64,000 nucleotides of DNA from Streptomyces decoyicus (lineage in GTDB: Bacteria > Actinomycetota > Actinomycetes > Streptomycetales > Streptomycetaceae): assembly GCF_019880305.1 (NCBI RefSeq), contig NZ_CP082301.1, forward strand, positions 806,001 through 870,000. The letters run 5' to 3'. Under the pieces are notes generated by a model. It was not told where the DNA came from, searched no databases, and was given only the letters and a program-made list of their open reading frames with translations. Positions 2,716-63,927 of this stretch are shown in pieces (position 1 is the first letter of the stretch; every line of letters starts with the position of its first letter). Position numbers and translations under genes: made by a program.

Positions 2716-2723
2716 GGCTCGGG

Positions 2724-5578: not shown

Positions 5579-5585
5579 GCCGATC

Positions 5586-6191: not shown

Positions 6192-6251
6192 CGGCGTCGT
6201 CACGAAGGGGCGCGGGGGCCGACCCATGGGGAATCCCCTGCGCCCCACCTC

Positions 6252-6281
6252 TTGACAGCTCCCCCGGCTGGAACTGACGAT
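6252..6281 (+). promoter_or_regulatory. Promoter of the asparagine-catabolism operon
   Basis: TTGACA at 6252-6257 is a perfect -35. With an 18-base spacer, GACGAT (6276-6281) is a fair -10. The GTG at 6288 then falls at the expected transcription start, implying a leaderless message. The TTG inside the -35 is in frame with the regulator gene but is best read as promoter, not start codon. Confidence 0.5.
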
Positions 6282-33961: not shown

Positions 33962-35269
33962 TCACGAGGCGGGTTCCGTGGACGTACGGCGCCAGCGGGT
34001 CAGGACGAGGTGGGCGATGACCCCGAAGAGCAGGCCCCAGAAGGCGGATCCGATGCCGAAGAGGGTGACGCCGGACGCGGTGGCGAGGAAGGTGATCAGG
34101 GCCGCCTCGCGGTCCTTCTCCTCCTTCACCGCTCCGGTCAGGCCGCCGGCCAGGGCGCCGAACAGCGCGACTCCGGCGACCGCCGCCACCAGTTCCTTGG
34201 GCAGGCCCGCGAAGAGCACCACCAGCGTGGAGCCGAACGCCCCGATGAGGAGGTAGAACGCACCGCAGGAGACTCCCGCCACGTACCGGCGCCGCGGGTC
34301 GCGGTGGGACTCGGGGCCGGTGCAGATCGCGGCGGTGATCGCCGCGAGGTTGATGGCGTGGGAGCCGAACGGGGCCAGGAGCGTGGAGACCAGGCCCGTG
34401 GAACCGATCAGGAGGCGGTCCTTGGGCTGGTAGCCGGATGCGGTGAGCACGGCCATGCCCGGTGCGTTCTGCGAGGCGAGCGTCGCCAGGATCATCGGTA
34501 CCGCGATGCCGATGAGGGAGGCGAGCGAGAACTCCGGGGTCGTCAGCACCGGCTTGGCCAGTTCGATCCGGTCCAGGTGGATGTCCAGCCGGGAGCTGAC
34601 CGCGCTGGCCGCGACGCCCGCCGCCAGGGCGACCAGCACGGCGTACCGCGGCAGCCACCGTTTCCCCAGGAGGTAGGCGAGCAGCACCGAACCGGCGATG
34701 AGCGGTGCGGTCTTGAGGGAGGTGAAGACTCCTGTGCCGAAGGAGAACAGGATGCCGGCGAGCATGGCGGAGACGACGGCGGTGGGCACCTGCCGCATCA
34801 GCCACCCGAACACCCCGGTCAGGCCGACCAGGGTGATCACCAGTCCGGTGATGAGGAACGCGCCGATGGCTTCGGCGTAGGAGTAGGCGCCCAGGCTCGT
34901 GACCAGCAGGGCGGCGCCCGGTGTCGACCATGCGGTGATCACCGGCATCTTGGTGCGCAGGCTCAGTGCGATGCAGGTCAGGCCGCTGCCGATGGAGATG
35001 GCCCATACCCATGAGCTGGTCTGGGCGGTGTCCAGATGTCCGGCGGAAGCCGCCGCGAGCACGATGACGAGCGGGCCCGAGTAGGACACGACGACGGCGA
35101 CGAAACCCGCGAGCACGGCGGACAGTGAGGCGTCGCGCATGAAGCCGGGCCGGCGCCCCGGCCCGGCGGCCGGGGGCTCGACGGCGCCCTCCGGCACCGC
35201 GGCGCCCGCCGGCGGGGAGGAGTCCGGCGGTGCGGCGTCGGGGTGAGGAGTGGGGGTCTTGGAACTCAA
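33962..35269 (-). CDS. BenE-type (benzoate/H+ symporter family) transporter
   Basis: A 435-residue membrane protein with about twelve segments. BenE landmarks include SGPLVIVLAAASAGHLDTAQ, TKMPVITAWSTPGAALL, LASQNAPGMAVLTASGY and FGSHAINLAAITAAICTGPESH. The family imports benzoate by proton symport, but members with other substrates exist. The TTG start overlaps the upstream stop (TTGA) with AAGGAAG before it, so it is translationally coupled as the last gene of the diaminopropionate operon. It may therefore export or import that pathway's product. The first 40 residues are Pro/Ala-rich. Confidence 0.88.
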   Translation of the reverse strand: MSSKTPTPHPDAAPPDSSPPAGAAVPEGAVEPPAAGPGRRPGFMRDASLSAVLAGFVAVVVSYSGPLVIVLAAASAGHLDTAQTSSWVWAISIGSGLTCIALSLRTKMPVITAWSTPGAALLVTSLGAYSYAEAIGAFLITGLVITLVGLTGVFGWLMRQVPTAVVSAMLAGILFSFGTGVFTSLKTAPLIAGSVLLAYLLGKRWLPRYAVLVALAAGVAASAVSSRLDIHLDRIELAKPVLTTPEFSLASLIGIAVPMILATLASQNAPGMAVLTASGYQPKDRLLIGSTGLVSTLLAPFGSHAINLAAITAAICTGPESHRDPRRRYVAGVSCGAFYLLIGAFGSTLVVLFAGLPKELVAAVAGVALFGALAGGLTGAVKEEKDREAALITFLATASGVTLFGIGSAFWGLLFGVIAHLVLTRWRRTSTEPAS

Positions 35270-36468
35270 CGGTCTTCCTTAGCGGCCTTTTCAAGGGCCT
35301 GTTCGAGGTCGGCGACGAGGTCTGCGGGGCTCTCCAGACCTATGGACAGGCGCAGCATGTCCTTCGGCGAGGTACTACCCGGCCCTTCGAAGGTGTAGCG
35401 GTGTTCGATCAGGCTCTCCACGCCGCCCAACGAGGTGGCACGGATGAAGAGTTCGCAGTGGTTCGCGGTCCGCAGGGACTGCTGCCATGCACCGTCGACG
35501 TGCAGGGAGAGCATGCCACTGAATCCCCCGGTCATCTGGCGGGCGGCGATCTCGTGGCCGGGGTCGGCGGCCAGGCCCGGGTAGGCGACGCGCCGGATGA
35601 GGGGGTGCTGCGCGAAGTGCTCGGCCACCGCCATCGCGGTGGCGGAGATCTGGCGCATACGGGGGAAGAGCGTGCGGATGCCCCGCATGAGGAGGTAGGT
35701 CTCCAGCGGGCCCAGTATCGGTCCGGTCAGCCGGCGGTGCAGCTGGAGCCGCTCCCAGATCGCGTCCCTGGCCTCCGTGCTCTCCGGCGCCTTGACGAGC
35801 AGTCCGGCGACGACATCCGTATGGCCGTTGAGGTACTTGGTGCCCGAATGCATGATCAGGTCGGCGCCGAGCGCGAACGGCTTGGAGTGCACCGGGGTGG
35901 GGACGGTGTTGTCGACGCCGAACAGGGCACCGGCCCCGTGTGCGATCTCGGCACAGGCGGCGATATCGGTGACCGTCCAGGTGGGGTTCGCCGGGGACTC
36001 CGCCCACACCAGTGCGGTCGGGGCGGCGGTCACGGCGGCGGCCACCGCGTCCAGGTCGTTCATCGGTACCTGCACGACCTCCAGACCGCGCTGGGGGCCG
36101 AACTCCCTGAGCCACTTGGTGAGTCCGAAGTACATGGTCTGCGGAACCACCACCCGTGCACCGGCGGGCAGTACCTGGAAGACGGAGGTGGCGGCCGCCA
36201 TACCGGACGAGAAGACGAGCGCGTCCGAGCCGCCCTCCAGTCCCGCCACGACGTTCTCGACCTGCTCGTACCCCGGTGTTCCCTGATCCCGCAGGTACGC
36301 CAGACCGGCGGGCGCACGGTACTCGTTGTCGCGCGCGTAGGTCGCTCCCAGTCCGATGGGGGGCGGCACGGCGCCCGTGGTCGGACAGCGCCAGCCGTCG
36401 CCCTGCGCGGCGCGCGTCTCGGGCCGGTACTCCTGCGTCCACGGGGTGAAGGTCTCGCTGTTGTTCAT
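35266..36468 (-). CDS. Cystathionine gamma-synthase-like PLP enzyme
   Basis: A 400-residue Cys/Met-metabolism PLP enzyme. The PLP lysine is Lys211 (LIMHSGTKYLNGH), Asp186 lies in FGVDNTVPTP, and the phosphate-binding SSGMAAA is at 88-94. Members catalyse gamma-replacement or elimination on activated homoserine. Its ATG overlaps the stop of the flavoprotein gene, and its own stop overlaps the BenE gene. In this operon it follows the diaminopropionate genes. C-N bond formation, as shown for fungal LolC, is a possible role, but that is inference; a degradative lyase is also possible. Confidence 0.85.
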   Translation of the reverse strand: MNNSETFTPWTQEYRPETRAAQGDGWRCPTTGAVPPPIGLGATYARDNEYRAPAGLAYLRDQGTPGYEQVENVVAGLEGGSDALVFSSGMAAATSVFQVLPAGARVVVPQTMYFGLTKWLREFGPQRGLEVVQVPMNDLDAVAAAVTAAPTALVWAESPANPTWTVTDIAACAEIAHGAGALFGVDNTVPTPVHSKPFALGADLIMHSGTKYLNGHTDVVAGLLVKAPESTEARDAIWERLQLHRRLTGPILGPLETYLLMRGIRTLFPRMRQISATAMAVAEHFAQHPLIRRVAYPGLAADPGHEIAARQMTGGFSGMLSLHVDGAWQQSLRTANHCELFIRATSLGGVESLIEHRYTFEGPGSTSPKDMLRLSIGLESPADLVADLEQALEKAAKEDR

Positions 36469-38318
36469 CGCTTCCTCGTCATCAGTGCCGGCAGAGCTGT
36501 GCCCAGGGCGAGTTCCGCGTCCAGCAGCGCACGGGAGGGCACGCCGGGCGAGGGCACATAGTGGTTGTAGTAACTGGATCCCTCGGTGTGCGGGCCGAGG
36601 AAGAACAGGTGCGGCTGCGGGGTGCCCGTGCGGTCGACGCCCTGGCCCCGGCGGGTGACATCGAGGCCGGGCACCGTGGCCCCGCGGTGGGCGAGGGTGC
36701 GGAGGCGGCCCGCGGTGACGAGCGCGCCGAGCAGGGACCCGGGCGCACGGTCCGCGCCGGGTTCGGCCACATGCGCCTGCACCACGTGGTCGGCCTCCAT
36801 CCGCAACGGCTGGGACAGGCAGGTGGATTCCAGCCGCCAGGGGCCCGCTCCGGCCGGTGCGACGATCTTCGGCTGCGGGCCGGGGCCGAGCCGGACGATC
36901 CCCGCGTCGATCAGGGAGAGCAGCTCTGCCGACCGGTCGAGCTGAGGGCCGATCACCAGCCGGTTCACCAGCGGGGCGAACTCCCCGAAGAACGTGGCCA
37001 AGGACGCGTCGTCGACGCCCGGCGCGTCGATGACCGCCCGCAGGACATCGCGGTGGTCGCGGAGGACCTCCAGGGCCTCCTTCAACGGGCTCACACCGAG
37101 GCCGTCCCGGGCCTCGGCCAGATCGGCACCGACCTCGGCGGTGAACCAGTCGAGGTAGGCCTCGTACCCCGGCCACCGCCGGTCCGCGAGGTCCGCTGAC
37201 AGGATCGCCGGCACCGGGGTGGGCCCGAACTGTGCACGCAGCTCAGCCAGTACCCGCTCGTGGCCCGCCCCGGCGCAGCGCCGGGTGAGCTCCCGCCCAG
37301 CGCCCAGGGCGTCGCCCGTCTCCCGGGCCAGCACGGTGCGGTAGTAGGCGAGTTCCATCTCGGCCTCGATGAGCGGCAGGACATTGTCGGTGAAGCGGAG
37401 CCGCCGGTCCGCATGGCGGGCACGGATCGTGTCGAGACGGTCCGTGGTCAGTGCCAGCGGTGCGCAGCGCACCCGTCCCGGGTGGAGGCGGGGGCGGCTG
37501 CGCGAGGGCATCCCGGACCGGTTGGTGAGCACGATCGACGGCTCCCGGCCGCTGGGCAGATAGCGCATGCCGTGCTCGTCCGTCGTGTGCTTGCCGCCGC
37601 GGCCGAGCGTCAGCGTGGCGATGACGTCCATGGCGGTCAGCCCCATGCCGAGGACGGCCACGCGTTCGCCCGGCCCGATGCTGTCGAGTGCCGCGGGCAA
37701 CGGGTAGGGGCGGGTGACCAGTCGTGGGTCGGGTGCGGGTGCCGCGGGCCGGTAGAGCGTGTGGTGCCCGACGGTCACGAACACGACGTCCGCGGCGATC
37801 CGGCTGCCGTCGGCGAGGACCACCGTCTCGGTGTCCGACGTACCGGGGAGGATGTCGACGGCCGTCGTACGGTGCCGGACCAGTGTGAGGCTCTCGGGCG
37901 CCGCGGCGGCGATCTCCTCCGCCGCCCAGACGAGATATTCGCTCAGGAGTCTGCGCGGCAGGAAGTCGTTCGGCTGGATCTCCCGGCCTTCTCCCGCGCG
38001 CACGGTGTAGCCGTCGTCCGCCAGCCGCAGGTCGCGGCGCCGGCACCAGGCGTGGAGCGAGGGACCGGGCAGCGGTACGGGCCCGTCCACCATCTCCGCG
38101 TCGGCAAAGGCCGTCAACTGTGCGCAGACGGTGTTGAGCAGGAGGTGGTCGGGCTGGCCGGGCAGGTGGAATCCGGCGCCGAAGGGCTGTGGGTCGATGA
38201 GGTGGACGGTGAGCGGGTCCGGGCGGTCCAGGCAGTGGGCGACCAGCCGTTCGAAGACGCCCAGACCGCGCGATCCGGCACCCACGATCGCAACGGAGCG
38301 GGGTATGTGGTTCACCAC
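36465..38318 (-). CDS. FAD/NAD(P)-binding protein (PF13454-like)
   Basis: A 617-residue flavoprotein. An N-terminal FAD motif, SVAIVGAGSRGLGVFERL, is followed by LIDPQPFGAGFHLPGQPDHLLLNT, and a second nucleotide motif, VAVLGMGLTAMDVIATLTL, lies near residue 220. The layout fits the FAD-NAD(P)-binding family related to N-hydroxylating and Baeyer-Villiger monooxygenases; the reaction is unknown. The GTG start overlaps the sbnB-like stop by 7 bases, with GGGGAG 8 bases upstream. Position in the operon suggests that it modifies diaminopropionate or a product made from it. Confidence 0.8.
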   Translation of the reverse strand: MVNHIPRSVAIVGAGSRGLGVFERLVAHCLDRPDPLTVHLIDPQPFGAGFHLPGQPDHLLLNTVCAQLTAFADAEMVDGPVPLPGPSLHAWCRRRDLRLADDGYTVRAGEGREIQPNDFLPRRLLSEYLVWAAEEIAAAAPESLTLVRHRTTAVDILPGTSDTETVVLADGSRIAADVVFVTVGHHTLYRPAAPAPDPRLVTRPYPLPAALDSIGPGERVAVLGMGLTAMDVIATLTLGRGGKHTTDEHGMRYLPSGREPSIVLTNRSGMPSRSRPRLHPGRVRCAPLALTTDRLDTIRARHADRRLRFTDNVLPLIEAEMELAYYRTVLARETGDALGAGRELTRRCAGAGHERVLAELRAQFGPTPVPAILSADLADRRWPGYEAYLDWFTAEVGADLAEARDGLGVSPLKEALEVLRDHRDVLRAVIDAPGVDDASLATFFGEFAPLVNRLVIGPQLDRSAELLSLIDAGIVRLGPGPQPKIVAPAGAGPWRLESTCLSQPLRMEADHVVQAHVAEPGADRAPGSLLGALVTAGRLRTLAHRGATVPGLDVTRRGQGVDRTGTPQPHLFFLGPHTEGSSYYNHYVPSPGVPSRALLDAELALGTALPALMTRKR

Positions 38319-39313
38319 CGGCGGGTCTCCCCGAAGAAGTTGGGCACCTCGATGGCGGTGCCGTCCTTACGGGCCTCGCCGAGGACGAACGCCCCGACGG
38401 CCAGGTCGAGCACGCCCAGGCCGAACGGCGAGAAGATCACCGGGCGGTCCGGGGAGAGCGTCACCTCGCCGTTCAAGACGCCGGCGAGGGTTCCGTTCAC
38501 GAACTCACGGGAGCCCGAGCGCTGCTCGGCGAGGTGCGGTGACGTCTGCGCCTTGAGGCAGTGGTCGATGTCGTCGAGGACGTTGTCCGCCGCGAGGACC
38601 ACTTCCGGGGCGAGGTCACGCAGGGAGACGTGGAGAACGACCTGGCCGGGCTTGAACGGCGTGCTGACGTAGGGCTCCAGCGCGGTCGTGGCGAACACGA
38701 CGGTGTCCGCCCGCAGCGCGGCATCGAGATCGGCGGTGAAGACGGCCGGGCAGTTCTGGGTGGTGCGCACGTGGTCGGCCAGGGCCTGTCCGGACGCCTC
38801 GTCGAGATCGTGGACGAGGTACGAGTCCGGGACGCAGCCCGCGACGGCAAGGTAGTCGCAGATGTTGCGCGCGATGACTCCGCCGCCCACGACGGCGATC
38901 CGGGTCCCCTCGAAGCCGTCCGGGCGGAGCGCGGTCGCCGCGACGGCCGCGGAGGCGGCGGTGCGTGCCGAGCTGATGCTCGCGGCTTCCAGACAGGCGA
39001 TCGGATACCCGGTCTCGTAGTCGTTCAGAAGGAGAACGGCCGATGCCCGCGGGGCTCCGATGCGTGTGTTGCCCGGGAAGCTCGCGATCCACTTGATACC
39101 GGCCAACTGAACATCGGCGCCCAGAAAGGCGGGCAGCGCAATGATCCGGGAATCCGGCTTCTCCGGGAAGCGGAGGAAGTAGCTGTCCGGATTGATGGAA
39201 TCTCCGGACTCATGCGCCTGATAGGCGCTGCGCACAATACCGAGAACGTCTGCGCGCTTGTCGTCGAGGACGTGACGAACCGTCTCTCCGGCAACTATAT
39301 CGAAGTTGAACAT
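38312..39313 (-). CDS. sbnB: N-(2-amino-2-carboxyethyl)-L-glutamate dehydrogenase, SbnB type
   Basis: A 333-residue member of the ornithine-cyclodeaminase/mu-crystallin family with the SbnB pattern: GIKWIASFPGN, ASAVLLLNDYETGYPIACLE, the NAD motif IAVVGGGVIARNICDYL and HVSLRDLAPEVVL. SbnB oxidises the adduct made by SbnA to L-2,3-diaminopropionate and 2-oxoglutarate. It lies 15 bases downstream of the sbnA-like gene, the classical pairing. Ornithine cyclodeaminase itself is less likely given that neighbour. Confidence 0.87.
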   Translation of the reverse strand: MFNFDIVAGETVRHVLDDKRADVLGIVRSAYQAHESGDSINPDSYFLRFPEKPDSRIIALPAFLGADVQLAGIKWIASFPGNTRIGAPRASAVLLLNDYETGYPIACLEAASISSARTAASAAVAATALRPDGFEGTRIAVVGGGVIARNICDYLAVAGCVPDSYLVHDLDEASGQALADHVRTTQNCPAVFTADLDAALRADTVVFATTALEPYVSTPFKPGQVVLHVSLRDLAPEVVLAADNVLDDIDHCLKAQTSPHLAEQRSGSREFVNGTLAGVLNGEVTLSPDRPVIFSPFGLGVLDLAVGAFVLGEARKDGTAIEVPNFFGETRRW

Positions 39314-39328
39314 AAAGCTTCCCCCTTC

Positions 39329-40303
39329 TCAGGCAGGTGCCTGAGACATCTGCCGACCGGATATGTCGGGCCAGCGTTCCGCCACCCATGCGTCGTTGTA
39401 GATGGTCTCCAGATAGCGATCGCCGAAGTCCGGTGAAATCGCCACCACGACGCTGCCGTCCGGGATGTTCTTTGCCGCATCCTGCACGGCGGACAGAACC
39501 GTTCCGGTCGACCCTCCCAGGAGCAGTCCGCGTTCTTCGGCCAGCATCCTGCACATCTCGACGGAATCCGATTCGGGAATGAGCACCACATCGTCGATAT
39601 TCCGCGTGTCCAGTATTTCCGGACGCCTGCTCGTTCCCAGGCCCGGAATGTGACGGCGGGCGGCCGGCCCGCCGAAGGTCACGGAGCCCGCGGCGTCCAC
39701 CGCGATGATCCGGGTGGCGGGGCTGTGCCGGCGGAGGTACTCCGCGCAGCCCATCAGCGTTCCCGTCGTCCCGGCCCCGATGAACGCGTAGTCGATATGA
39801 CCGATCTCCTCCAGGATCGCCCGGCCGGTGCGGTCCCGGTGCGCCTGCGGCCCGGCCGGGTTGGCGTACTGGTTCAGCCAGTGGAGATCGGGATCGCGGC
39901 GCAGGCGCTCACCGATGTAATCGATGCGCGATTGCAGATAGCCACCGTGGGCGTCCCGGACGTCGATGACCACCACTTCGGCGCCGAGGACCTCCATCAG
40001 GCGCCTCGACTGGACATTGGCGTTGGGATCCGTGACACAGGTCAGTGGGTAGCCCTTTGCCGCGCACACCATCGCCAGGGCGACGCCGAGGTTCCCCGAC
40101 GTCGACTCGATCAGCCGGGTCCGCGGAAAGCCGCGACCGGAATCCTCGGCCGCCGCTACCAGCGCGACGGCGGTCTTCAGCTTTACCGAACCGGCAGGAT
40201 TGAGACCTTCCAGTTTGAGGAAGACTGAACTCCCAGGCACCAGTTGGTCGAGCCGGATGAAGAGATCATCCAGCACCAGATCATAAACTTCTTCCGCTAT
40301 CAC
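39329..40303 (-). CDS. sbnA: N-(2-amino-2-carboxyethyl)-L-glutamate synthase, SbnA type
   Basis: A PLP fold-type II enzyme of about 324 residues (SbnA of Staphylococcus aureus is 326). The PLP lysine is Lys41 in LNPAGSVKLKTAV; the substrate loop is ESTSGNLGVALAMVCA; the phosphate loop is GAGTTGTLMG. SbnA joins O-phospho-L-serine and glutamate. I choose GTG 40303 for its length match; an ATG at 40336 is also in frame. It heads the five-gene operon. A cluster of overlapping inverted repeats (40329-40353) lies just upstream. Confidence 0.86.
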   Translation of the reverse strand: MIAEEVYDLVLDDLFIRLDQLVPGSSVFLKLEGLNPAGSVKLKTAVALVAAAEDSGRGFPRTRLIESTSGNLGVALAMVCAAKGYPLTCVTDPNANVQSRRLMEVLGAEVVVIDVRDAHGGYLQSRIDYIGERLRRDPDLHWLNQYANPAGPQAHRDRTGRAILEEIGHIDYAFIGAGTTGTLMGCAEYLRRHSPATRIIAVDAAGSVTFGGPAARRHIPGLGTSRRPEILDTRNIDDVVLIPESDSVEMCRMLAEERGLLLGGSTGTVLSAVQDAAKNIPDGSVVVAISPDFGDRYLETIYNDAWVAERWPDISGRQMSQAPA

Positions 40304-47830: not shown

Positions 47831-48289
47831 TCACGGGTCGAGGCCGCTGCCCTGGGGGCCGTACAGATCCAGCAGGCGGATGCGGGTGCCGTGCAGCCGC
47901 TCGGCCACCGTCTCGGCAACATAGCGGTACATCGCCCGGCCCACGACGGGATCGGACTCGCACAACGCGCGGACCACGCCGGCGTCGAACTCCACGGCCT
48001 CCACGGGGCCCACGGTCTCCGCTCCCAGGTGCCACAGGTAGGGCGGGAACAGCCAGGACCAGCCGAGCAGTTCGTCGCGGCCGAGGGTTTCGACGATCGC
48101 CGCCCGGCGCCCCGGCACGCGCTGGTCGAGCGCGATCTGCCCGCTGCGGATGATCCAGAAGCGGTCCGCCCGCCGGCCCTCCTCGAAGAGGCGGGTGCCA
48201 CGCGGCATCGACACCTCGACGGCCAGGTCGGTCAGCTGCCGGCGCCGGTCGGGCGGCATCGCATGGAACAGGTGTCTGATGGTGGCCAT
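47831..48289 (-). CDS. Cyclic-nucleotide-binding-domain protein of the peptide export locus
   Basis: A 152-residue protein made of a single cNMP-binding-like beta-roll (LFEEGRRADRFWIIRSGQIAL; DELLGWSWLFPPYLWHLGAE) without the helix-turn-helix of Crp/Fnr regulators. Proteins of this type recur beside NHLP/bacteriocin export genes (bacteriocin-type transport-associated proteins). Here it is the last gene downstream of the two ABC transporter genes on the same strand, 100 bases away. It may regulate or assist the exporter; the mechanism is unknown. Confidence 0.75.
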   Translation of the reverse strand: MATIRHLFHAMPPDRRRQLTDLAVEVSMPRGTRLFEEGRRADRFWIIRSGQIALDQRVPGRRAAIVETLGRDELLGWSWLFPPYLWHLGAETVGPVEAVEFDAGVVRALCESDPVVGRAMYRYVAETVAERLHGTRIRLLDLYGPQGSGLDP

Positions 48290-48388: not shown

Positions 48389-51283
48389 TCAGGCCAGCTG
48401 ACGTCGCACCAGATCGTGCAGCCGGCCGCCCGTGTCGGCGAGCAGCTCGGCCGGCGGGCCCTGCTCGACGATCCGGCCCTCCGCCATGACGATCACCCGG
48501 TCGGCGTCCATGACCGTGGACAGCCGGTGGGCGATCACCAGACGGCTGGCACTGAGCTGTCGGGTGCTGTCGCTGACGATGCGCTGGGTCTCGTTGTCCA
48601 GGGCGCTGGTGGCCTCGTCGAAGAACAGGATCCGCGGGCGGCGGACCAGTGCCTGGGCGATCATCAGCCGCTGCCGCTGACCGCCGGAGATGGCCCCACC
48701 GCCGGAGATCATGGTGTGCAGTCCCATCGGCATCCGCTTGATGTCCTCGGCCAGGCCCGCCATCTCGGCAGCCGCCCAGGCCTCTTCCTGGGTGAAGGAC
48801 TCGGCACCGCAGATGCAGTCCAGGATCGATCCGGTGAGCGGCTGCGCGTTCTGGAGGACGACGCCGCACTGGCGGCGCACCGCCGCCTGGTCCAGGGCGG
48901 CCAGGTCCTGGCCGTCGTAGAGCACATTGCCCGAGGAGGGCTTGTCGAAGCCGATGAGGAGCCGGAGCAGGGTCGACTTGCCGCAGCCGCTCGGGCCGAC
49001 GACGGCCACGAACTCGCCGGGCTCGACCCGCAGCGAGACCTCGTCGAGGACCAGCGGGCCGTCGTCGGTGTAGCGGAAGGACAGCTTCTTGGCTTCGATG
49101 CCGCCGGACAGGGCGCCGGGCTGGGCGCTGGCGCCGCGCACTTCGGGCTTCTCGTCCAGCACCGGCTGGATCTGCTCGAACATCGGCAGCGCGGCGGCGG
49201 CCGAGACGAAGGCGCCGGTGATCTGGGTGACCGAGGTCAGGAGCATGGTCACCGAGGTGTTGAAGGTGAGGAACGAGCCGGCCGACATGCTGCCGCGGGC
49301 CGGTCCGGCCAGCAGCATGAACATGGCGAGCGAGCAGAGCGGCAGATAGACCGCGTTGAGCACGGTGGTCAGGTTCTTGATCCGGCCGGCCTTCTGCTGG
49401 AGTTCGCGGGAGCGGGCGAACTCACGGGCCCAGGCGGCGTACGCAAAGCTCTCGGCCGCGGCGACCCGCAGCTTGGGCAGCCCGCGCAGGGTCTGGAACG
49501 CCTGGTTGTTGAGCTTGTTGCCGAGCTTGACCAGGCGTCGCTGCCAGCGCAGCTCCCACAGGCCCATGGCGAGGAACACCGCACCGATGACGAGCAGCAT
49601 GGCGACGGCCGCCAGTGCCAGCGGCACGCTGTAGACGAGCAACAGCACGAGGTTCATCGCGCCGACCGTGGTGGCCTGCACGGCCACCGGGCCGAGTCCG
49701 GAGAGCACCCGCCGGATGGCGCTGATGCCCATCGCCGCGCTGGCCAGCTCTCCGGTGGAGCGTTCGGTGAAGAACTTGGTCGGCAGCCGCAACAGCCTGT
49801 CCCACACGGCCGGCTGCAACGCGCTCTCGATCCGGCCCTCCATCCGCAGCACGGTGAGGTTCTGCAACAGCATGAAGGCGGCGGAGACGACGCTGGTGAT
49901 GATGACGGCCAGGGAGACCTGGACGATCAGGCTCTTGTCGGCGCTCGGGACGTACACCCCGAGCACCTTGCCGGTCGCGATGGGCACGAGGGCGCCGAGA
50001 CCGACCGTCACCAGTCCGGCGAGGGCCAGATTGCGCAGGTCCAGCCGTGTGCCGCGCAGGCTGAAGCGCATCAGGCGCCACATGTTCATGGGCCGCTCCG
50101 GCAGCGGACGGTAGAACATGACGGCGCGCGGTTCGAGTTCGTCGGCGTTGTCCTTGCCGATGCGCATCCGCAGCCCGGAGGCCGGGTTGACCGCCTCGTA
50201 GCGGCCGCGGCGCCACAGCAGCGCCACGGGGGCACCGGACTTGGCGCGGTGGCCCACCAGGGGGCCGGTGTCGGTCCGCCACCAGCGGCCCTGGAGCCGG
50301 ACGGCGCGGGTGCGGATCCGCGAGCTGACCGCGATCCGTTCGACCGGGGTGATGCGGTCGTTGGCGGCGGCGCCCTTCGGCGGCTCGGTGAGCGTGATCC
50401 CGGCCGCCTCCGCGACCGTGCGGCAGACCGCGAAGGTGGCGTCGTCGCCGGCCCGGTCCATCCCGGTGCCGCCCCGGCCGGCCCGGTCCTGGCGGCCGAT
50501 GGAGGCGATCAGCGCCTGGTCGGCCCGCTCGCGGACGGTCTCGCCCGCCTTGATGCCGGCCGCCGTACGGTCCTCGTGAGCGCGTTCCAGGTGCTCGATC
50601 CAGCGGTCGACGGCGGACAGCAGCCGGTACTGCTGATTGACCATCTGCTGCCACAGCTCGGGGTCCACCAGCAGATCGCCGGCCGCCTCCGCACTGTAGG
50701 AGGCGCCGTACTGCACGCTGCCGGGCGGCACCGGCATCCACAGGATGTCGTCGTCGGCCACCGCCTCGTCGGCGGGCCTGCCGTCGAGCGGTGCCTCGAA
50801 CAGCACGCCCAGGCTGCGGGCCGTGCCCAGCGCAAAGGCGTGCTCCAGCGCGGAGGGTGCCTCGCGCTGGCCGCCGTACGCGGGGTCGTGGCCGTAGCCG
50901 CCCTGGGTGCCGTACTGCGGGTAGGAACCGGTGTCCCACTGCTCGCCGTACTCGTACCGGGGCAGCTCGCGCAGCGGGATCCGGCGCAGTCGGCAGTCCT
51001 GTGACGGCCGGCCGAGCAGGGTGTGCTGCGGGCCCGCGACCGGGCCGAGCAGCAGGGTGCCCGCTTCGAGCCGGCCGAGGAAGTGCCAGTGCCCTTCCTG
51101 GGCGACGTCGACCGCGAAGAGGTCGAGCCACCCGCCGGTGACGAGCCACAGCACATGCGGGCCCTCCAGGGGCACGTTGCGCAGTCCGGTGCAGTCGACG
51201 GGGGTGCCGACGCCGCCCAGCGCCTGCGTCACCGCGTCGGTGTAGCCCGGTCCCACGAGCGCGGGCGGGGGTACGGATGACAC
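48389..51283 (-). CDS. NHLP bacteriocin export ABC transporter, second permease/ATPase subunit
   Basis: A 964-residue protein. A long N-terminal half (1-480) without peptidase cysteine carries a cyclic-nucleotide-like region (GHWHFLGRLEAGTLLLGPVAG). Then come six membrane segments (about 500-760) and an ABC ATPase: Walker A VGPSGCGKST, signature ISGGQRQRLMIAQAL, Walker B ILFFDEATSALD. This matches the NHLM ABC2 family that pairs with a peptidase-containing partner to export Gly-Gly-leader peptides. The GTG at 51283 has AAGGAG upstream and begins one base after the partner's stop codon. Confidence 0.88.
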   Translation of the reverse strand: MSSVPPPALVGPGYTDAVTQALGGVGTPVDCTGLRNVPLEGPHVLWLVTGGWLDLFAVDVAQEGHWHFLGRLEAGTLLLGPVAGPQHTLLGRPSQDCRLRRIPLRELPRYEYGEQWDTGSYPQYGTQGGYGHDPAYGGQREAPSALEHAFALGTARSLGVLFEAPLDGRPADEAVADDDILWMPVPPGSVQYGASYSAEAAGDLLVDPELWQQMVNQQYRLLSAVDRWIEHLERAHEDRTAAGIKAGETVRERADQALIASIGRQDRAGRGGTGMDRAGDDATFAVCRTVAEAAGITLTEPPKGAAANDRITPVERIAVSSRIRTRAVRLQGRWWRTDTGPLVGHRAKSGAPVALLWRRGRYEAVNPASGLRMRIGKDNADELEPRAVMFYRPLPERPMNMWRLMRFSLRGTRLDLRNLALAGLVTVGLGALVPIATGKVLGVYVPSADKSLIVQVSLAVIITSVVSAAFMLLQNLTVLRMEGRIESALQPAVWDRLLRLPTKFFTERSTGELASAAMGISAIRRVLSGLGPVAVQATTVGAMNLVLLLVYSVPLALAAVAMLLVIGAVFLAMGLWELRWQRRLVKLGNKLNNQAFQTLRGLPKLRVAAAESFAYAAWAREFARSRELQQKAGRIKNLTTVLNAVYLPLCSLAMFMLLAGPARGSMSAGSFLTFNTSVTMLLTSVTQITGAFVSAAAALPMFEQIQPVLDEKPEVRGASAQPGALSGGIEAKKLSFRYTDDGPLVLDEVSLRVEPGEFVAVVGPSGCGKSTLLRLLIGFDKPSSGNVLYDGQDLAALDQAAVRRQCGVVLQNAQPLTGSILDCICGAESFTQEEAWAAAEMAGLAEDIKRMPMGLHTMISGGGAISGGQRQRLMIAQALVRRPRILFFDEATSALDNETQRIVSDSTRQLSASRLVIAHRLSTVMDADRVIVMAEGRIVEQGPPAELLADTGGRLHDLVRRQLA

Positions 51284-51284: not shown

Positions 51285-53573
51285 TCAGTGCTCCTTGACC
51301 AGCTCGGCGTACGGGCCCCCGGCGGCGACCAGGTCCTCGTGCCGGCCGCGTTCGACAACCACGCCGTGGTCGAGGACGACGATCTCGTCACTGTCGCGGA
51401 CCGTGCTCAGCCGGTGGGCGATGACGACGCAGGCGCAGCCGCGCCGCCGCAGGTTGTCCATGATGGTCTGTTCGGTCCGGGCGTCCAGTGCGCTGGTGAC
51501 CTCGTCGAGGACCAGGATGCTGGGGCGCCGGACCAGTGCGCGGGCGATCTCCAGCCGCTGCCGCTGCCCGCCGGAGAAGTTGCGGCCGTCCTGCTCGACC
51601 CGGCTGTAGATGCCGTCGGGGCGGCGGACGATCACATCGTCGTAGAGTGCGGCGTCCTGGAGGGCGGTAATGACCGCGTCGTCCGGTATCGAGGGGTCCC
51701 ACAGCGCCACGTTGTCGCGGACCGTGCCCTCGAAGAGGAAGATGTCCTGGTCGACAAAGGACACGGAGGCGGCCAGCGCACTGCGGGAGAGGTCCTCCAG
51801 CCGCTGTCCGTCGATGCGGATGGTGCCTTCCCAGGGGCTGTAGAGGCCGGAGATCAGCCGGGAGACGGTGGACTTGCCGCTGCCGGATCCGCCGACGAGG
51901 GCGACCTGCCGGCCGGGGCCGACGGCCAGCGAGAAGCCGGTGAGCAGCGGTTTGTCCAGCGGGCTGTAGCCGAAGGTGATGCCCTCCAGCGTCACATGGC
52001 CCTTGAGCCTGCGGGTGTCGGCGTCCGGCTCGGGACGCGAGTAGAGGGTGTCGACGGGGAAGCTCTCGACGTCCTTGAGACGGGCCACGTCGGCGGCGAA
52101 GTCCTGGATGCGGCCGGCCACTCCGTTGAGCCGGGTGATGGGTGCGGTGAAGCGGGTCACCAGCGCCTGGAAGGCGACCAGCAGACCGATGGAGATATGG
52201 CCCTCGACCGCCCGCAGTCCGCCGATCCACAGGATCAGTGCGCTGTTGAGCGTGGCCAGGGTGGGCGCGACGACGGCCAGCGCGGCGCTGGGCACACCGA
52301 GGCGCTGCTGCACCTCCAGCGTGGTGGCGTGCTGGCCGGCCCAGCGGCGGAAGTAGCCGTTCTCCCCGCCGGTGGCCTTCATCGTCTCGATGAGCTGGAG
52401 ACCGGTGTAGGAGGTGTTGGTGAGCCGGGCCGTGTCGGCGCGCAGCTTCTGGGTGTGGGTGGACCGCAGCCGGATCACGATCCGCATGGCGACGACGTTG
52501 AGCAGGGCGATGCCCACGCCGATGACCGTCAGTTGCGGGTCGTAGGTCCACAGCAGGACGGCGTAGAGGATGACCACGATCCCGTCCACCCCCGCGGCGG
52601 CGAGGTCGCGCGCCAGGGTTTCGGCCACCGCGTCGTTGGACTGGAGCCGCTGGACCAGGTCGGCCGGGCTGCGCTGGGCGAAGAAGGTGACCGGGAGTCT
52701 GAGCAGATGGCGCAGGAACCGGGCGCTGGTCAGGGTGGAGGAGATGATGCGGCCGCGCAGCAGATTCGCCTGTTGCAGACCGGTCAGTACGGCGGTCAGC
52801 GCCACCATCGCGGCCATCGACGCGAAGAGCGGCCCCAGCAGCGAGGTCTGGTTGCCGATCAGGAACATGTCGATGTACGTACGGCTCAGCGCGGGCACCG
52901 CCGCGCCGACCGCGACCAGCAGCAGGCTGGCGAGCAGCGCGGCCAGCAGGGTGCCGGTGGTGCCGCGCATCCGGGCGGGCACCGCGCCGAGGACGCCGGG
53001 CTTGCGGCCGCCCTTGCGGAAGTCCTCGCCCGGCTCGAAGACCAGGGCGACACCGGTGAAGCTGGTGTCGAAGTCCTCCATCGCCACGAAGCGGCGGCCC
53101 TTGTCGGGGTCGTTGATGCGCACGCCGCGGCGGCCGAAGCGGCGGCAGGGGCCGTCGTAGACGACGTAGTGGTTGAACTCCCAGAACAGAATGGCCGGCG
53201 CCTGCACTTCGGCGAGCGCGGCCGGTTCCATCTGCATGCCCTTGGCCTGGAGCCCGTAACTGCGGGCGGCCTTGAGCAGGTTGCTGGCGCGCGAGCCGTC
53301 GCGGGAGACCCCGCAGGCGATCCGCAGCTCCTCCAGCGGCACATGCCGTCCGTAGTGGGCGAGCACCATGGCCAGCGAGGCGGCGCCGCATTCCACGGCC
53401 TCCATCTGGAGGATGGTGGGGGTGCGTACGGACTTCGTCTTCTTGGGCTTCGGAGCGGGCGGCGCGGCGCGGCGGGTACGGCGCGCGCCGGGTGCGGGCT
53501 CCGGGCGGTGCCGGCCGCGCCCGGGAGGCGGCAGCTGCTGCTGCGGGGCTGCGGAGTCGTGGGGTGCGGTCAC
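51285..53573 (-). CDS. NHLP bacteriocin export ABC transporter with C39 peptidase domain
   Basis: A 762-residue exporter. The N-terminal C39 peptidase has Gln56, Cys62 (LQMEAVECGAA), His135 (EFNHYVVYD) and Asp155 (INDPDKG), a complete catalytic set for cutting after Gly-Gly. Six membrane segments lie at about 185-460 and the ATPase follows (Walker A VGGSGSGKST; signature FSGGQRQRLEIARAL; Walker B ILVLDEVTSALD). It processes and exports the precursor encoded upstream. The GTG overlaps the HlyD stop (GTGA). Confidence 0.92.
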   Translation of the reverse strand: MTAPHDSAAPQQQLPPPGRGRHRPEPAPGARRTRRAAPPAPKPKKTKSVRTPTILQMEAVECGAASLAMVLAHYGRHVPLEELRIACGVSRDGSRASNLLKAARSYGLQAKGMQMEPAALAEVQAPAILFWEFNHYVVYDGPCRRFGRRGVRINDPDKGRRFVAMEDFDTSFTGVALVFEPGEDFRKGGRKPGVLGAVPARMRGTTGTLLAALLASLLLVAVGAAVPALSRTYIDMFLIGNQTSLLGPLFASMAAMVALTAVLTGLQQANLLRGRIISSTLTSARFLRHLLRLPVTFFAQRSPADLVQRLQSNDAVAETLARDLAAAGVDGIVVILYAVLLWTYDPQLTVIGVGIALLNVVAMRIVIRLRSTHTQKLRADTARLTNTSYTGLQLIETMKATGGENGYFRRWAGQHATTLEVQQRLGVPSAALAVVAPTLATLNSALILWIGGLRAVEGHISIGLLVAFQALVTRFTAPITRLNGVAGRIQDFAADVARLKDVESFPVDTLYSRPEPDADTRRLKGHVTLEGITFGYSPLDKPLLTGFSLAVGPGRQVALVGGSGSGKSTVSRLISGLYSPWEGTIRIDGQRLEDLSRSALAASVSFVDQDIFLFEGTVRDNVALWDPSIPDDAVITALQDAALYDDVIVRRPDGIYSRVEQDGRNFSGGQRQRLEIARALVRRPSILVLDEVTSALDARTEQTIMDNLRRRGCACVVIAHRLSTVRDSDEIVVLDHGVVVERGRHEDLVAAGGPYAELVKEH

Positions 53574-54376
53574 GGCAGCAGCCAATCGATCGGGTGCTGC
53601 GCGGCCAGGTGGACGGCGCCACTGGCCGGCGTCATGGAGTCGATCTTGTACGGCGGGCCGCCGGAGGTCGACCAGGCGTAGCCGGACCCACTGTGCGGGG
53701 CGGGGTCGAGCTGCACCAGGACGGCGAGGGGCTGGCCGTGCTGCGAGAACTGCTCGCCGAGCTGGCTGTTGCCCAGGTAGGCGCCGATCCGCTGGCGGGT
53801 CTGCGCGGTCCTGCCGACGGCCTTGACCCGCCCGCGCAGTACGCCGTACTGCTGGCTGGGCACGGACTGGACGGTGAGGTCGACGGCCGCGCCGACGGGG
53901 ACGGAGGCGCCGCTCTCGGCCGGTACGTACAGCGTCGCCGTCAGGGGGTCGCCGGGGTGGGCGACGCGCTCCACGGAGGCCACATCCGCACCGGTGGTGA
54001 CGACGGAGCCGATCGTGGCGACCATGGTGGTCAGCCGGCCGGCGGCGAGTGTGCGGACGACGGTGGCGCCCCGGGCGGTGCGGAGCTTCAGAACGGGGGT
54101 GTTGGCGGCCACCCGCTTGCCTTCTTCGGCGAGCACGGCGGTGACCTGGCCCGCGACGGGGCTCTGCAGGACATAGCTGCCCTGGCCGTGGGTGAGGATT
54201 CCGGGTGCGTTGAGGGTGGACGACACGGTGCCGGTCACCGCCCATACGGACGCGGCGATCACGAACAGGACCGTGACGGTCAGCACGAGCCAGCCCCGGG
54301 GGCGGGCGAAGCGCACCGGCAGATCGATTTCCTCGGGCGACTGCAGCTTGGAAAGGGCCTGTTGGCGGAACTGCAC
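53570..54376 (-). CDS. NHLP export HlyD-like secretion protein
   Basis: A 268-residue membrane-fusion-type protein. A short cytoplasmic N-terminus (FRQQALSKLQSPEEIDLPVRF) resembles NHLP HlyD-family starts. A single membrane segment (WLVLTVTVLFVIAASVWAV, about 29-47) precedes a lipoyl/barrel-sandwich part (GSYVLQSPVAGQVTAVLAEEGKRV). It lacks the long coiled hairpin of Gram-negative HlyD, as expected in a monoderm. GTG start with GAGGGAAG upstream. It lies between the precursor gene and the peptidase-ABC gene. Confidence 0.87.
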   Translation of the reverse strand: MQFRQQALSKLQSPEEIDLPVRFARPRGWLVLTVTVLFVIAASVWAVTGTVSSTLNAPGILTHGQGSYVLQSPVAGQVTAVLAEEGKRVAANTPVLKLRTARGATVVRTLAAGRLTTMVATIGSVVTTGADVASVERVAHPGDPLTATLYVPAESGASVPVGAAVDLTVQSVPSQQYGVLRGRVKAVGRTAQTRQRIGAYLGNSQLGEQFSQHGQPLAVLVQLDPAPHSGSGYAWSTSGGPPYKIDSMTPASGAVHLAAQHPIDWLLP

Positions 54377-54556
54377 GACACTCTTCCCTCAACTGCAATG
54401 GTCTGTGTCAGACGGGTGGCGGCCGGGCGCCCCGGTCCCGGGCTGAGCCAGGGATCCGGGGCACTCGGCCCGGCATGTCGGCAAGGAGGGGGCGCCGACC
54501 TGCCGTTGTCACCGTTCAAAGCCGGCTGTACCGCTCAGCGGCACAGAGGATTCGAC

Positions 54557-54784
54557 TCAGAGACCGGAGACCAGGCCCGTGGCGGTGCCGACGACGCCCG
54601 AGGCGTTGAGGCCGGTGGCGCCGTCGACCAGGCCGGTGGCGGTGCCCACGGCGCCCGAGACCGGGGCGATCGAGTCAACGGTGTTGGCGGCGGTGCCGAC
54701 CGCGCCGTTGAGGAGGCCACCGGACACGTTGTCCAGGTCGGCGTCGGAGATTTCCTGGGTCTGAACCTGGGGGGTGGAGTTCAT
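54557..54784 (-). CDS. Gly-Gly-leader bacteriocin-like precursor peptide (Cys-free, Gly/Ala/Val/Thr-rich)
   Basis: A 75-residue precursor. The leader is residues 1-23, ending ISDADLDNVSGG, the classical double-glycine cleavage site for C39 exporters. The 52-residue core has no Cys and is made of repeats: GAVGTAANTV (27-36), GAVGTATGLV (44-53) and GVVGTATGLV (63-72 approx.), giving GxxxG-type glycine zippers that can insert in membranes. GAAGGGA precedes the ATG. The HlyD, peptidase-ABC and ABC genes follow on the same strand. No lanthipeptide or other modifying enzyme is nearby. Its activity (toxin, signal or surface peptide) is not known. Confidence 0.85.
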   Translation of the reverse strand: MNSTPQVQTQEISDADLDNVSGGLLNGAVGTAANTVDSIAPVSGAVGTATGLVDGATGLNASGVVGTATGLVSGL

Positions 54785-55540
54785 GATGTTTCCCTTCGGA
54801 TGAATATCTCGAAAAAGCTGCGCCCGAACCGTCCGGTGGGGTGGCCCGGCCGCTGCTGCGGCAGTCCGGTACCCGAAATCGGGAACCGATGGTGTGACTT
54901 CCGCGGTGCGAAGGATCAAAGCATGCGGGCGCGTGGTGCTGCTAATCCGAGAACCGCTGATCCGGACCCCAACGCCCCCCTGAATTCCCTGAAGTGCACG
55001 CATGTCCATGACTTGGTGGCAGCTTCTTCACACCTTCTCCAGTTTCACTTCCGACCCACCGGTAACCCCTCGTTCGACGAACAGGACATTCCCACACCAA
55101 ACCGCTGACGTGCAGGTCAGCGTGGGGATGGGTCACTGAAGAGCGGGTGCCGACTGCGCATTCGGTGTGCAGATTCTTTGAAGACTCCCAATTTTTACGG
55201 CACCCGAGGACAGCACGGTCGCGGAACTCCGGCGCCGGCCTCCGACGAACCGCTCCGAATGTTGCACGGGCATGAAATGTGCCCGATTCGCCCGGAGTTC
55301 AGGGGCGGCATCGGGCGTGTTGAACGTATTGAACGGAATCATCAGAACTATCCGTACGCCATTCCCATGGAAACGGATCGAGTAGCCGGAGAACGGACAT
55401 AGGCGTATAACAGCGGGCCTTCGGACCCGTCGGTAATGGGCGATTCGCGACGGCGGCACCGACACCCCGGTGGCAGCCGCCCACGGCGTGCGGCACCGTG
55501 AAAGGACGCTGCGGGGCCGCGCCCCGGAAAGGAGCCGTCC
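54785..55540. other. 756-base intergenic region upstream of the precursor gene
   Basis: This region separates the divergent precursor (minus) and PHP-domain (plus) genes. It has AT-richer patches, a small inverted repeat GGGCA-N7-TGCCC at 55268-55284 and no frame with coding-like composition. I found no second precursor with a Gly-Gly leader. It presumably holds promoters for both genes, and its length suggests complex control. Confidence 0.4.
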
Positions 55541-62277: not shown

Positions 62278-63927
62278 TTGAGCCACCGACATGTGAACAA
62301 GCGCCTGCGGACCGGCGCCATCGCCGCCGCCGGTGTGGCCGCCGTCGCGGCCGCAGCGATCCTGCTCCCCAACGCCAACGCGAGCACGGACCAGCCGGCG
62401 GCCCCGAAGACGCTCAGCGCCCACTCGGCCACGCAGCTGGCGGCGTCCCTGAAGGCAGACCTGGGGGACAAGGGCGCCGGCTGGTACCTGGACAGCGCGA
62501 AGGGCCACCTGGTCATGAACGTGCTGTCGGAGGAGGCCGCCAAGAGCGTCACGGCCAAGGGCGCCGTCGCCAAGGTCGTGCACAACAGCATGACCGCGCT
62601 GAAGGCCGGTGCGAAGACCCTGCGCGACTCCGCCTCGGTGCCCGGCACGGCGTGGTCGATCGACCCGAAGACCAACAAGATCGTGGTGCTCGCCGACAGA
62701 ACTGTCACCGGCGCAAAGATGGCCACGCTCAACAAGGCCACGGGTGGCATGGGTGAGGGCATGGTCACCGTCAAGCGGTCTCAGGGCGAGTTCAAGCGGT
62801 ACGACGGTGGGAACGCGGGGAGCGCGGCCGGCGGTGCGTCCGGTGCCAACGGCGGGCAGGCGGCGGGCGGTGCCGGGAACGCGGCCGGGGCCGGTGGCGC
62901 CGGAGACGCGGCGGGCGCCGGTGGCGCCGGGGGCGCAGCAGGAGGTGCCGGTGACGCCGCAGCCGGTGGTGCCGGGGACGCTGCGGGCGGTGCCGGAGAC
63001 GCAGCCGGTGGCGCCGGGGACGGCGGACAGCAGGCCGCGGGCCCGGTCGGCGGCAGTGCCATCTTCGGCGGCAACGCACGCTGCTCGCTGGGCTTCAACG
63101 TCACGGTCAAGGGCGCACCGGCCTTCCTGACGGCCGGTCACTGCGGCAACGACTCCAAGACCTGGACGGCGGACCAGGGCGGCAGCCAGCCGCTGGGCAC
63201 GGTCTCCGACTCCCAGTTCCCGAAGACCGACTTCGCGCTGGTCACCTACGACGACACCGCCGCGAAGCCGCAGAGCGCGGTCGACCTGGGCAACGGCAGC
63301 ACCCAGGAGATCACCAAGGCCGCGGAGGCCGCCGTCGGCATGAAGGTGCAGCGCTCGGGCAGCACCACCGGCCTCCACGACGGCACCGTCACCGGCCTTG
63401 ACGCCACGGTGAACTACGGCAACGGCGACATCGTCAACGGCCTCATACAGACGGATGTCTGTGCCGAGCCCGGCGACAGCGGCGGCGCGATGTTCTCCGA
63501 CGACTCGGCCGTCGGCCTGACCTCCGGTGGCAGCGGCGACTGCACCGCGGGCGGCGAGACCTTCTTCCAGCCGGTCACCGACGCGCTCAAGGCCACGGGT
63601 GCGGAGATCGGCGCCGGAGGCGGCGGCGCGGGCGGCGCCGGCGATGCAGGCGGCGGTGACGCCGCGGCAGGTGGCGCGGGCGACGCCGCGGCAGGTGGCG
63701 CGGGCGACGCCGCGGCAGGTGGCGCAGGTGACGCCGCGGCAGGTGGCGCAGGTGACGCCGCGGCAGGTGGCGCAGGTGACGCCGCGGCAGGTGGCGCCGG
63801 AGCCGGTGACGCCGGTGCGGGAGACGCCGCTGCGGGAGACGCCGGAGCCGGAAGCGCCGGTGCGGGAGACGCCGGTGCGGGTGCCCAGGACCCGGGAGCC
63901 GCCGGCAGCGGCGACTCGCTGAACTGA
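62278..63927 (+). CDS. Secreted S1-family (alpha-lytic/SGPB-like) serine protease with Gly/Ala/Asp repeat regions
   Basis: A 549-residue preproenzyme. The TTG start has GGAGGT 7 bases upstream. A signal peptide spans 1-36 (basic N-terminus, Ala-rich core), and a prodomain of alpha-lytic-protease type spans about 40-177. Residues 178-256 are a Gly/Ala-rich repeat (GGAGDAA units). The protease domain (257-442) begins VGGSAIFGGNARCSLGFNV, with His288 (TAGHC), Asp318 (TDFALV) and Ser401 (EPGDSGGAM). A second repeat tail (443-549) ends the protein. Standard Streptomyces griseus proteases have neither repeat region. The first lies exactly where autoprocessing normally occurs; the tail may mediate wall or surface attachment. 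Confidence 0.9.
   Translation: MSHRHVNKRLRTGAIAAAGVAAVAAAAILLPNANASTDQPAAPKTLSAHSATQLAASLKADLGDKGAGWYLDSAKGHLVMNVLSEEAAKSVTAKGAVAKVVHNSMTALKAGAKTLRDSASVPGTAWSIDPKTNKIVVLADRTVTGAKMATLNKATGGMGEGMVTVKRSQGEFKRYDGGNAGSAAGGASGANGGQAAGGAGNAAGAGGAGDAAGAGGAGGAAGGAGDAAAGGAGDAAGGAGDAAGGAGDGGQQAAGPVGGSAIFGGNARCSLGFNVTVKGAPAFLTAGHCGNDSKTWTADQGGSQPLGTVSDSQFPKTDFALVTYDDTAAKPQSAVDLGNGSTQEITKAAEAAVGMKVQRSGSTTGLHDGTVTGLDATVNYGNGDIVNGLIQTDVCAEPGDSGGAMFSDDSAVGLTSGGSGDCTAGGETFFQPVTDALKATGAEIGAGGGGAGGAGDAGGGDAAAGGAGDAAAGGAGDAAAGGAGDAAAGGAGDAAAGGAGDAAAGGAGAGDAGAGDAAAGDAGAGSAGAGDAGAGAQDPGAAGSGDSLN
63658..63801 (+). repeat. Six tandem 24-bp repeats encoding DAAAGGAG
   Basis: Units start at 63658, 63682, 63706, 63730, 63754 and 63778. 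They are nearly identical (core GACGCCGCGGCAGGTGGCGC) and lie within the C-terminal tail of the protease gene. Their near identity implies recent expansion by slippage or recombination. Looser GGAGDA-type repeats occur at about 62860-63030. Confidence 0.85.

What the first reader, a model, noticed from the sequence alone, without database searches (positions are those of the whole stretch)
53570..54784. NHLP-type export locus for a Cys-free, glycine-zipper peptide without modifying enzymes
The 75-residue precursor has a perfect Gly-Gly leader (ISDADLDNVSGG). Its core is three imperfect 10-residue repeats (G(A/V)VGTA(A/T)) with GxxxG spacing and no cysteine. It sits directly upstream of a HlyD-like protein, a C39 peptidase-ABC protein and a second NHLP ABC protein. 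NHLP loci usually export modified precursors (nitrile-hydratase-like or lanthipeptide-type), but none of the flanking genes encodes a modification enzyme. This suggests an unmodified membrane-active or surface peptide, possibly a new bacteriocin or developmental signal.
Basis: partly seen in the sequence, partly recalled or inferred. Interest (0 to 1): 0.85.

Follow-up and report, generated by a model that had tools for sequence, protein, structure and literature searches.

The report
Streptomyces unmodified secreted-peptide regulon
This stretch encodes a small, greasy, cysteine-free peptide and the machine that probably cuts and exports it; the four-gene set is common in Streptomyces and already reported in S. 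coelicolor, but relatives carry extra peptides elsewhere that share its export tag and its unusual promoter.

Summary
The precursor lies at 54557-54784 (-): a 23-residue double-Gly leader and a 52-residue Cys-free core with three real internal repeats. HlyD-like, C39-ABC and second ABC genes follow. The locus itself is not new: it matches the published S. coelicolor operon sco0753-0756, described in 2019 as a Cys-free hydrophobic peptide with its exporter, strongly induced when a two-component system is locked on.

New here: (1) the four-gene order is intact in 86 of 91 fetched loci with no shared modifying enzyme seen; 0 of 86 distinct cores hold Cys; 21 of 69 genomes with leader and exporter have neither LanM nor YcaO. 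(2) Leader and exporter co-occur (69 of 71 exporter genomes, 1 of 30 others). (3) 26 of 70 leader-bearing genomes hold one to three further precursors elsewhere, with the same leader and different cores. (4) Both kinds share a two-box upstream element with rigid spacing; its strict form matches 55 times in 101 whole genomes, each 48-142 bp upstream of a leader. (5) Cores show helical periodicity.

Best reading: one exporter serving a promoter-defined set of unmodified peptides, probably acting at the hyphal surface or membrane. Export is inferred; activity is untested.

The parts
54557..54784 (-). precursor peptide CDS, 75 aa
   Evidence: translation; 60 of 101 genomes with a homologue
54716..54784 (-). 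leader, residues 1-23, ending VSGG
   Evidence: sequence; leader profile A2 matches 70 of 101 genomes
54560..54715 (-). core, residues 24-75, Cys-free, Gly/Val/Thr/Ala/Leu-rich
54677..54706 (-). core repeat 1, residues 27-36
54626..54655 (-). core repeat 2, residues 44-53
54569..54598 (-). core repeat 3, residues 63-72
53570..54376 (-). short HlyD-like adaptor, 268 aa
   Evidence: TIGR03794 E 1.8e-44, 152.4 bits against cut-off 156.2; PF13437 over cut-off
51285..53573 (-). C39 peptidase / ABC exporter, 762 aa, GTG start overlapping the HlyD-like stop; catalytic Cys62, His135, Asp155
   Evidence: TIGR03796 1007.3 bits; PF03412; triad residues identical in 88 of 88 aligned
48389..51256 (-). second NHLM-type ABC protein (start codon uncertain; the open frame reaches 51391)
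   Evidence: TIGR03797 902.7 bits; gene
54913..54923 (-). regulatory box 2, TGCTTTGATCC, 139 bp upstream of the start codon; promoter-like position
54942..54947 (-). GATTAG (consensus GATTGG) block 24-19 bp upstream of box 2
55023..55033 (-). regulatory box 1, GTGTGAAGAAG, 110 bp upstream of box 2

Best explanation
A dedicated export system for unmodified peptides. The precursor is made with a 23-residue double-Gly leader; the C39 domain of the exporter cuts after Gly-Gly and the ABC pair with the short HlyD-like adaptor releases a 52-residue, Cys-free, weakly acidic, Gly/Val/Thr-rich core. The core behaves like a helical peptide with a Val/Leu stripe and a Gly stripe and probably sits or assembles on a membrane or the hyphal surface, where it changes how hyphae adhere. 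One exporter serves the adjacent precursor and, in many genomes, further precursors encoded in trans with the same leader, and all are switched on through the same two-box promoter element, plausibly by the Sco5282/Sco5283-type two-component system. Shown here: gene order, leader-exporter co-occurrence, shared element, core composition and periodicity. From the literature: induction of the S. coelicolor operon by that system. Inferred: cleavage, export and absence of modification (about 0.85), service to the trans copies (about 0.7), control of the shared element by that system (about 0.5), surface or membrane action (about 0.45).
For: Four-gene order intact in 86 of 91 loci; C39 triad in 88 of 88; precursor 963-1269 bp upstream of the exporter gene in 57 genomes. 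Leader in 69 of 71 exporter genomes and 1 of 30 others, Fisher p 8e-22. 103 leader genes, 34 of them outside the cassette. Two-box element at 79 of 93 cassette and 31 of 42 trans upstream regions against 4 of 1176 other upstream regions, of which 3 are precursors my filter had missed and 1 is a cassette HlyD gene; strict pattern 55 matches in 47 of 101 genomes, 0 for the reversed control, 55 of 55 upstream of a leader. Cores: 0 of 86 with Cys, 0.07 Lys/Arg per core; Val/Leu/Ile enriched at i+3, i+4, i+7, i+11 and depleted at i+2 in 13 diverse cores. Sco0753 is the most overexpressed gene with the activated Sco5282 kinase, nearly silent in the null mutant, in a strain with smaller, looser pellets (PMC6629963, passages).
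Against: No peptide has been detected; export and cleavage are inferred. The 2019 phenotype was not traced to sco0753 in the passages seen. The AlphaFold2 model is poor (mean pLDDT 58). Between the window and its closest relative the core has 14 non-synonymous and 2 synonymous differences (small numbers, not tested), which fits an antagonistic or signalling peptide better than a structural coat. 8 of 42 trans cores hold one Cys. 14 of 93 cassette and 11 of 42 trans upstream regions do not reach the element score. The trans copies were found by the leader itself, so that they share it is no independent evidence. Two exporter genomes lack the leader (G028, contig end; G038, divergent exporter) and one incomplete genome has a leader without exporter.
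Confidence: 0.6

Rival explanations
1. An unmodified class II type bacteriocin set: the peptides form pores in competing bacteria and the trans copies are variants.
For: Double-Gly leader and C39 exporter; Gly i+4 spacing and helical periodicity; cores vary much more than leaders; several different cores per genome.
Against: No immunity gene recognised among recurrent neighbours of 91 loci; cores almost without Lys/Arg, while known class II bacteriocins are mostly cationic (recalled); present in about 70% of sampled species of the genus, unlike patchy bacteriocins (recalled).
Confidence: 0.2
2. A signalling peptide family: cores are read by neighbours or kin and the two-component system forms a loop with them.
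For: Strong induction by a two-component system in S. coelicolor (PMC6629963, passages); core diversity; dedicated promoter element.
Against: No receptor gene recurs beside the loci; cores are long and hydrophobic for a diffusible signal.
Confidence: 0.12
3. A lanthipeptide or other modified peptide ('type A2 lantipeptide' as named in databases) whose enzyme lies elsewhere in the genome.
For: Weak leader matches to PF04604 (15.9 against 21.7 bits) and NF000539 (14.8 against 29); database name reported in PMC13047742 (passages; I did not compare that sequence).
Against: No Cys in 86 distinct cores; 52 of 69 genomes have no LanM over cut-off, 26 no YcaO, 21 neither; exporter and LanM do not co-occur (Fisher p 0.34). 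A Cys-rich precursor beside a related exporter, in locus L200, does have YcaO and ThcOx-like genes at hand. Other enzyme classes were not searched genome-wide.
Confidence: 0.08

Closest known systems
S. coelicolor sco0753-sco0756 (PMC6629963; passages seen)
   Same: Small hydrophobic Cys-free peptide gene upstream of HlyD-like and two ABC genes; relatives of S. coelicolor such as S. coelicoflavus (L071) also have the Ppx/GppA gene next, as sco0757 in that paper.
   Different: SCO0753 was not compared letter by letter (its sequence was not fetched). The paper passages seen do not mention further precursors in trans or the two-box element.
NHLP/NHLM export systems (TIGR03794, TIGR03796, TIGR03797; Haft and colleagues, PMC2887384, search listing and abstract start only)
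   Same: Exporter proteins of these families.
   Different: Leader is short and of the plain double-Gly type, with no NHLP leader model matched; no modifying enzyme.
Unmodified double-Gly bacteriocins and class II microcins (recalled)
   Same: Double-Gly leader, C39-ABC exporter, Gly-rich core.
   Different: No immunity gene seen, almost no positive charge, genus-wide conservation, common promoter for scattered copies.
SapB, a surfactant lanthipeptide of Streptomyces (recalled; named in PMC6629963 passages)
   Same: Proposed surface-active role of a small secreted peptide.
   Different: SapB is made from Ser and Cys by a lanthipeptide synthetase; these cores have no Cys.
Prochlorosin-type systems, one enzyme with many trans precursors (recalled)
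   Same: Shared leader and diverse cores served by one machine.
   Different: Here the shared machine is the exporter, with no modification.

Membership tests
NHLP/NHLM export system | C39-ABC subunit over TIGR03796 cut-off | tested here: met
   1007.3 against 853.3 bits
NHLP/NHLM export system | second ABC subunit over TIGR03797 cut-off | tested here: met
   902.7 against 709.4 bits
NHLP/NHLM export system | HlyD-like subunit over TIGR03794 cut-off | tested here: inconclusive
   152.4 against 156.2 bits, E 1.8e-44; the protein has 268 aa against a 421-position model
NHLP/NHLM export system | nitrile-hydratase-like or Nif11-like leader on the precursor | tested here: not met
   no such family matched by the window precursor at E<=0.1 or listed for the 38 members of A1 at E<=0.01
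class II lanthipeptide (type A2 lantipeptide) | Cys in the core for thioether rings | tested here: not met
   0 of 86 distinct cassette cores
class II lanthipeptide (type A2 lantipeptide) | LanM in the locus or genome | tested here: not met
   own genome best 38.9 bits against cut-off 304; 52 of 69 genomes with leader and exporter have none over cut-off
class II lanthipeptide (type A2 lantipeptide) | precursor over the Pfam L_biotic_typeA cut-off | tested here: not met
   15.9 against 21.7 bits
unmodified class II bacteriocin | double-Gly leader with C39-ABC exporter | tested here: met
unmodified class II bacteriocin | immunity gene in the locus | tested here: not met
   no further family in more than 33 of 91 loci; only the 18 most frequent clusters were listed
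unmodified class II bacteriocin | antibacterial activity | not testable with these tools
   needs the peptide
sco0753-0756 orthologues | gene order, peptide size class, no Cys, high hydrophobicity | tested here: met
   against the description in PMC6629963
sco0753-0756 orthologues | sequence identity with SCO0753 itself | not tested
   the S. coelicolor sequence was not fetched

The most novel reading that the evidence does not exclude
A genus-wide peptide regulon of Streptomyces and near relatives: one dedicated exporter and one to four unmodified precursors per genome, sharing a nearly fixed leader and a private two-box promoter with rigid spacing, while the helical Gly-stripe cores diversify independently and act together, as mixed assemblies on the hyphal surface or membrane, to set how hyphae stick, part or recognise kin.
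Probability: 0.35. Interest if true: 0.8.

Novelty: new variant of a known kind. Interest (0 to 1): 0.6.

Why it matters
The peptide cannot be a lanthipeptide, although database naming leans that way, and it is widespread in an industrial genus. Its S. coelicolor counterpart tops the response of a system that loosens mycelial pellets, a practical problem in fermentation. The trans copies and the shared element turn one uncharacterised peptide into a defined set with a testable promoter code and a testable one-exporter, many-substrates rule.

Tried and rejected
Considered and set aside. Lanthipeptide or YcaO product: no Cys, and many genomes lack the enzymes. Beta-strand, chaplin-like amyloid: Val/Leu/Ile pairs at i+2 are strongly depleted. 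Structured RNA upstream: RNAalifold finds 0 pairs on 24 sequences (some rows lack box 1 because of my coordinates) and Rfam gives no match at its gathering score (two weak ones, E 0.071 and 0.27). Standard sigma-70 promoter: 0 found by the consensus scan. Structure model: mean pLDDT 58, too poor for a fold search, so none was run. GxxxG in the window core alone: p 0.09. bldA control: no TTA codons in the four genes. GarR motif paper PMC11043171: its motifs could not be compared, since sequences are not in the text seen.

Limits of counts. Genes in loci were called by a small script of mine, not a standard caller; it missed the own-genome trans copy (L036) and precursors of L100 and L112, and my leader filter dropped L091, L165 and L187 from the 92 cassette and 42 trans precursors. 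Loci from two collections overlap: L023 and L095 are one contig; 89 of the 92 cassette precursors are distinct. Spacing z-scores over all cores are inflated by relatedness; only those from representatives under 50% identity are used. The element consensus was read from some of the same genomes that were scanned, so its sensitivity there is not independent; its specificity is.
Full report
What is there. The window lies in an 8.63-Mb single-contig genome; named relatives with the closest precursors are Streptomyces, the best being S. kronopolitis at 85% identity, so I take it as Streptomyces (inference). The precursor at 54557-54784 (-) is MNSTPQVQTQEISDADLDNVSGG followed by a 52-residue core. 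Next come a short HlyD-like protein (53570-54376), a C39-ABC exporter (51285-53573) and a second ABC protein (48389-51256). Upstream on the other strand is a PHP/helix-hairpin-helix protein; downstream is a cNMP-binding-domain protein. The core has three true repeats (0 of 500 shuffles as good).

Distribution. In 101 genomes of the genus the precursor matches in 60 and the C39-ABC family is over cut-off in 71. A leader-only profile (24 rows) matches 70 genomes: 69 of the 71 with exporter and 1 of the 30 without (G001, 79% complete); the two exporter genomes without leader are G028 (exporter on a 3.2-kb contig) and G038 (divergent exporter). In the order-level sample 0 of 15 genomes outside the family match; within the family 9 of 17 genera match, this genus included. 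Where I read loci of seven other genera, nine show the same four genes.

No modifying enzyme. Of 91 fetched cassette loci, 86 keep the exact order precursor, HlyD-like, C39-ABC, ABC; four end at a contig end and in one the second ABC was not recognised. Apart from these genes no family recurs in more than 33 of 91 loci; the two at 33 are a secreted trypsin-like protease and a SpoIIE-type phosphatase. Of 69 genomes with leader and exporter, 52 have no LanM over cut-off, 26 no YcaO and 21 neither. None of 86 distinct cassette cores has Cys. A contrast is L200 in another genus of the family: a related exporter (57% identity) beside YcaO and ThcOx-like genes and a precursor-like ORF with a Cys-rich end, so modified and unmodified versions can be told apart.

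Trans copies. Beyond the cassette, 34 of 103 leader genes lie elsewhere (33 in 26 exporter genomes, 1 in G001; two weak matches dropped). The window's own genome has one at about 8,587.8 kb. Their cores are unlike the cassette core but again Gly/Ala/Val-rich; 8 of 42 read have one Cys.

The element. Upstream regions of cassette precursors share ATGTGAAGAAG (box 1) and GATTGG-N18-CGTGCTTTGATCC (box 2). The best dyad occurs in 40 of 63 non-redundant cassette upstream regions and 0 of 442 others. With both boxes scored together, 79 of 93 cassette and 31 of 42 trans regions reach 17 of 22, and in 105 of these 110 the spacing is 108-111 bp, while the sequence between is much less conserved. Of 1176 other upstream regions 4 reach that score: three precursors my filter had missed and one cassette HlyD gene. 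The strict pattern GTGAAG-N98-105-TGCTTTGATC occurs 55 times in 47 of 101 genomes, never as the reversed control, and all 55 lie 48-142 bp upstream of a leader on the same strand. Looser sites at other genes would be missed. The own-genome trans copy has a weaker version (18 of 22, spacing 113). In the cassette consensus GTGAAG recurs as GTGnAC about 22 bp on (by eye), as if a dimeric activator bound there, and box 2 resembles a -10 region in place and in its variable distance to the start codon; both are inference.

The core. Across 13 cassette cores under 50% identical, Val/Leu/Ile pairs are enriched at i+3, i+4, i+7 and i+11 (z 3.7, 2.9, 3.8, 2.4) and depleted at i+2 (z -8.0), and Gly pairs are enriched at i+4 (z 4.1) and i+11 (z 4.5). 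In the window core alone these Val/Leu/Ile enrichments are not significant (p 0.84, 0.82, 0.08 for i+3, i+4, i+7), though i+2 pairs are absent; its hydrophobic moment peaks at 110 degrees. AlphaFold2 gives three helices at low confidence (mean pLDDT 58). Leaders are under strong constraint (dN 0.03-0.09 in five comparisons); cores change faster (dN 0.12-0.46), and against the closest relative non-synonymous changes dominate (14 to 2, not tested).

Literature. PMC6629963 (2019; passages only) reports sco0753 as the most overexpressed gene with the activated Sco5282 kinase, log2 change 6.3, with sco0754-0756 also up and nearly silent in the null mutant. It calls the peptide 77 aa, 57% hydrophobic and without Cys, notes the same organisation in many Streptomyces, infers export by the neighbouring system and suggests a surface effect. 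So the core of the finding is in print. PMC5733086, PMC5882110 and PMC6414726 (passages) mention the genes as a bacteriocin cluster or efflux genes. PMC13047742 (passages) shows the 'type A2 lantipeptide' name for what is probably the same family (sequence not compared). Searches gave no paper on the trans copies or the element; the library lacks most subscription journals.

Verdict. The sequence observation stands; the claim of a new locus does not. What is new, as far as searched, is that the peptide is one member of a promoter-defined set served by one exporter.

Noticed in passing
L200 (other genus of the family), exporter at 1-1448, HlyD-like 1535-2350, YcaO protein 3961-6267, ThcOx-like 2347-3813, precursor-like ORF near 6976: NHLM-type exporter beside YcaO and ThcOx-like genes and an ORF ending in a run of Cys; looks like a thiazole-type modified peptide cluster.
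   Followed up: partly
L116, L122, L189 (also L163, L165 by eye): Some trans precursors sit beside genes whose sequences look like Flp pilin and TadE-like proteins (judged by eye).
   Followed up: no
window 54868-54887: Near-perfect palindrome GGTTCCCGATTTCGGGTACC between box 2 and the start codon, kept in near relatives; operator or 5' UTR hairpin (by eye).
   Followed up: no
33 of 91 cassette loci, e.g. L024 11875-13179 and 13365-15515; window 62293-63927: A secreted trypsin-like protease and a SpoIIE/GAF/PAS phosphatase recur near the cassette; the window has an ORF with a similar start 8 kb upstream (by eye).
   Followed up: partly
window 47831-48289 (-) and L022 2366-2824: A small cyclic-nucleotide-binding-domain protein (Pfam in the window copy) directly downstream of the second ABC gene in this genome and its nearest relative.
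   Followed up: no
own genome G000:C1:4208814-4208861: A weak third leader match (E 0.003), left out of the counts.
   Followed up: no
window 35266-40303 (-): Adjacent ORFs that by eye look like an NRPS-independent siderophore or amino-acid derived metabolite cluster; not tested.
   Followed up: no
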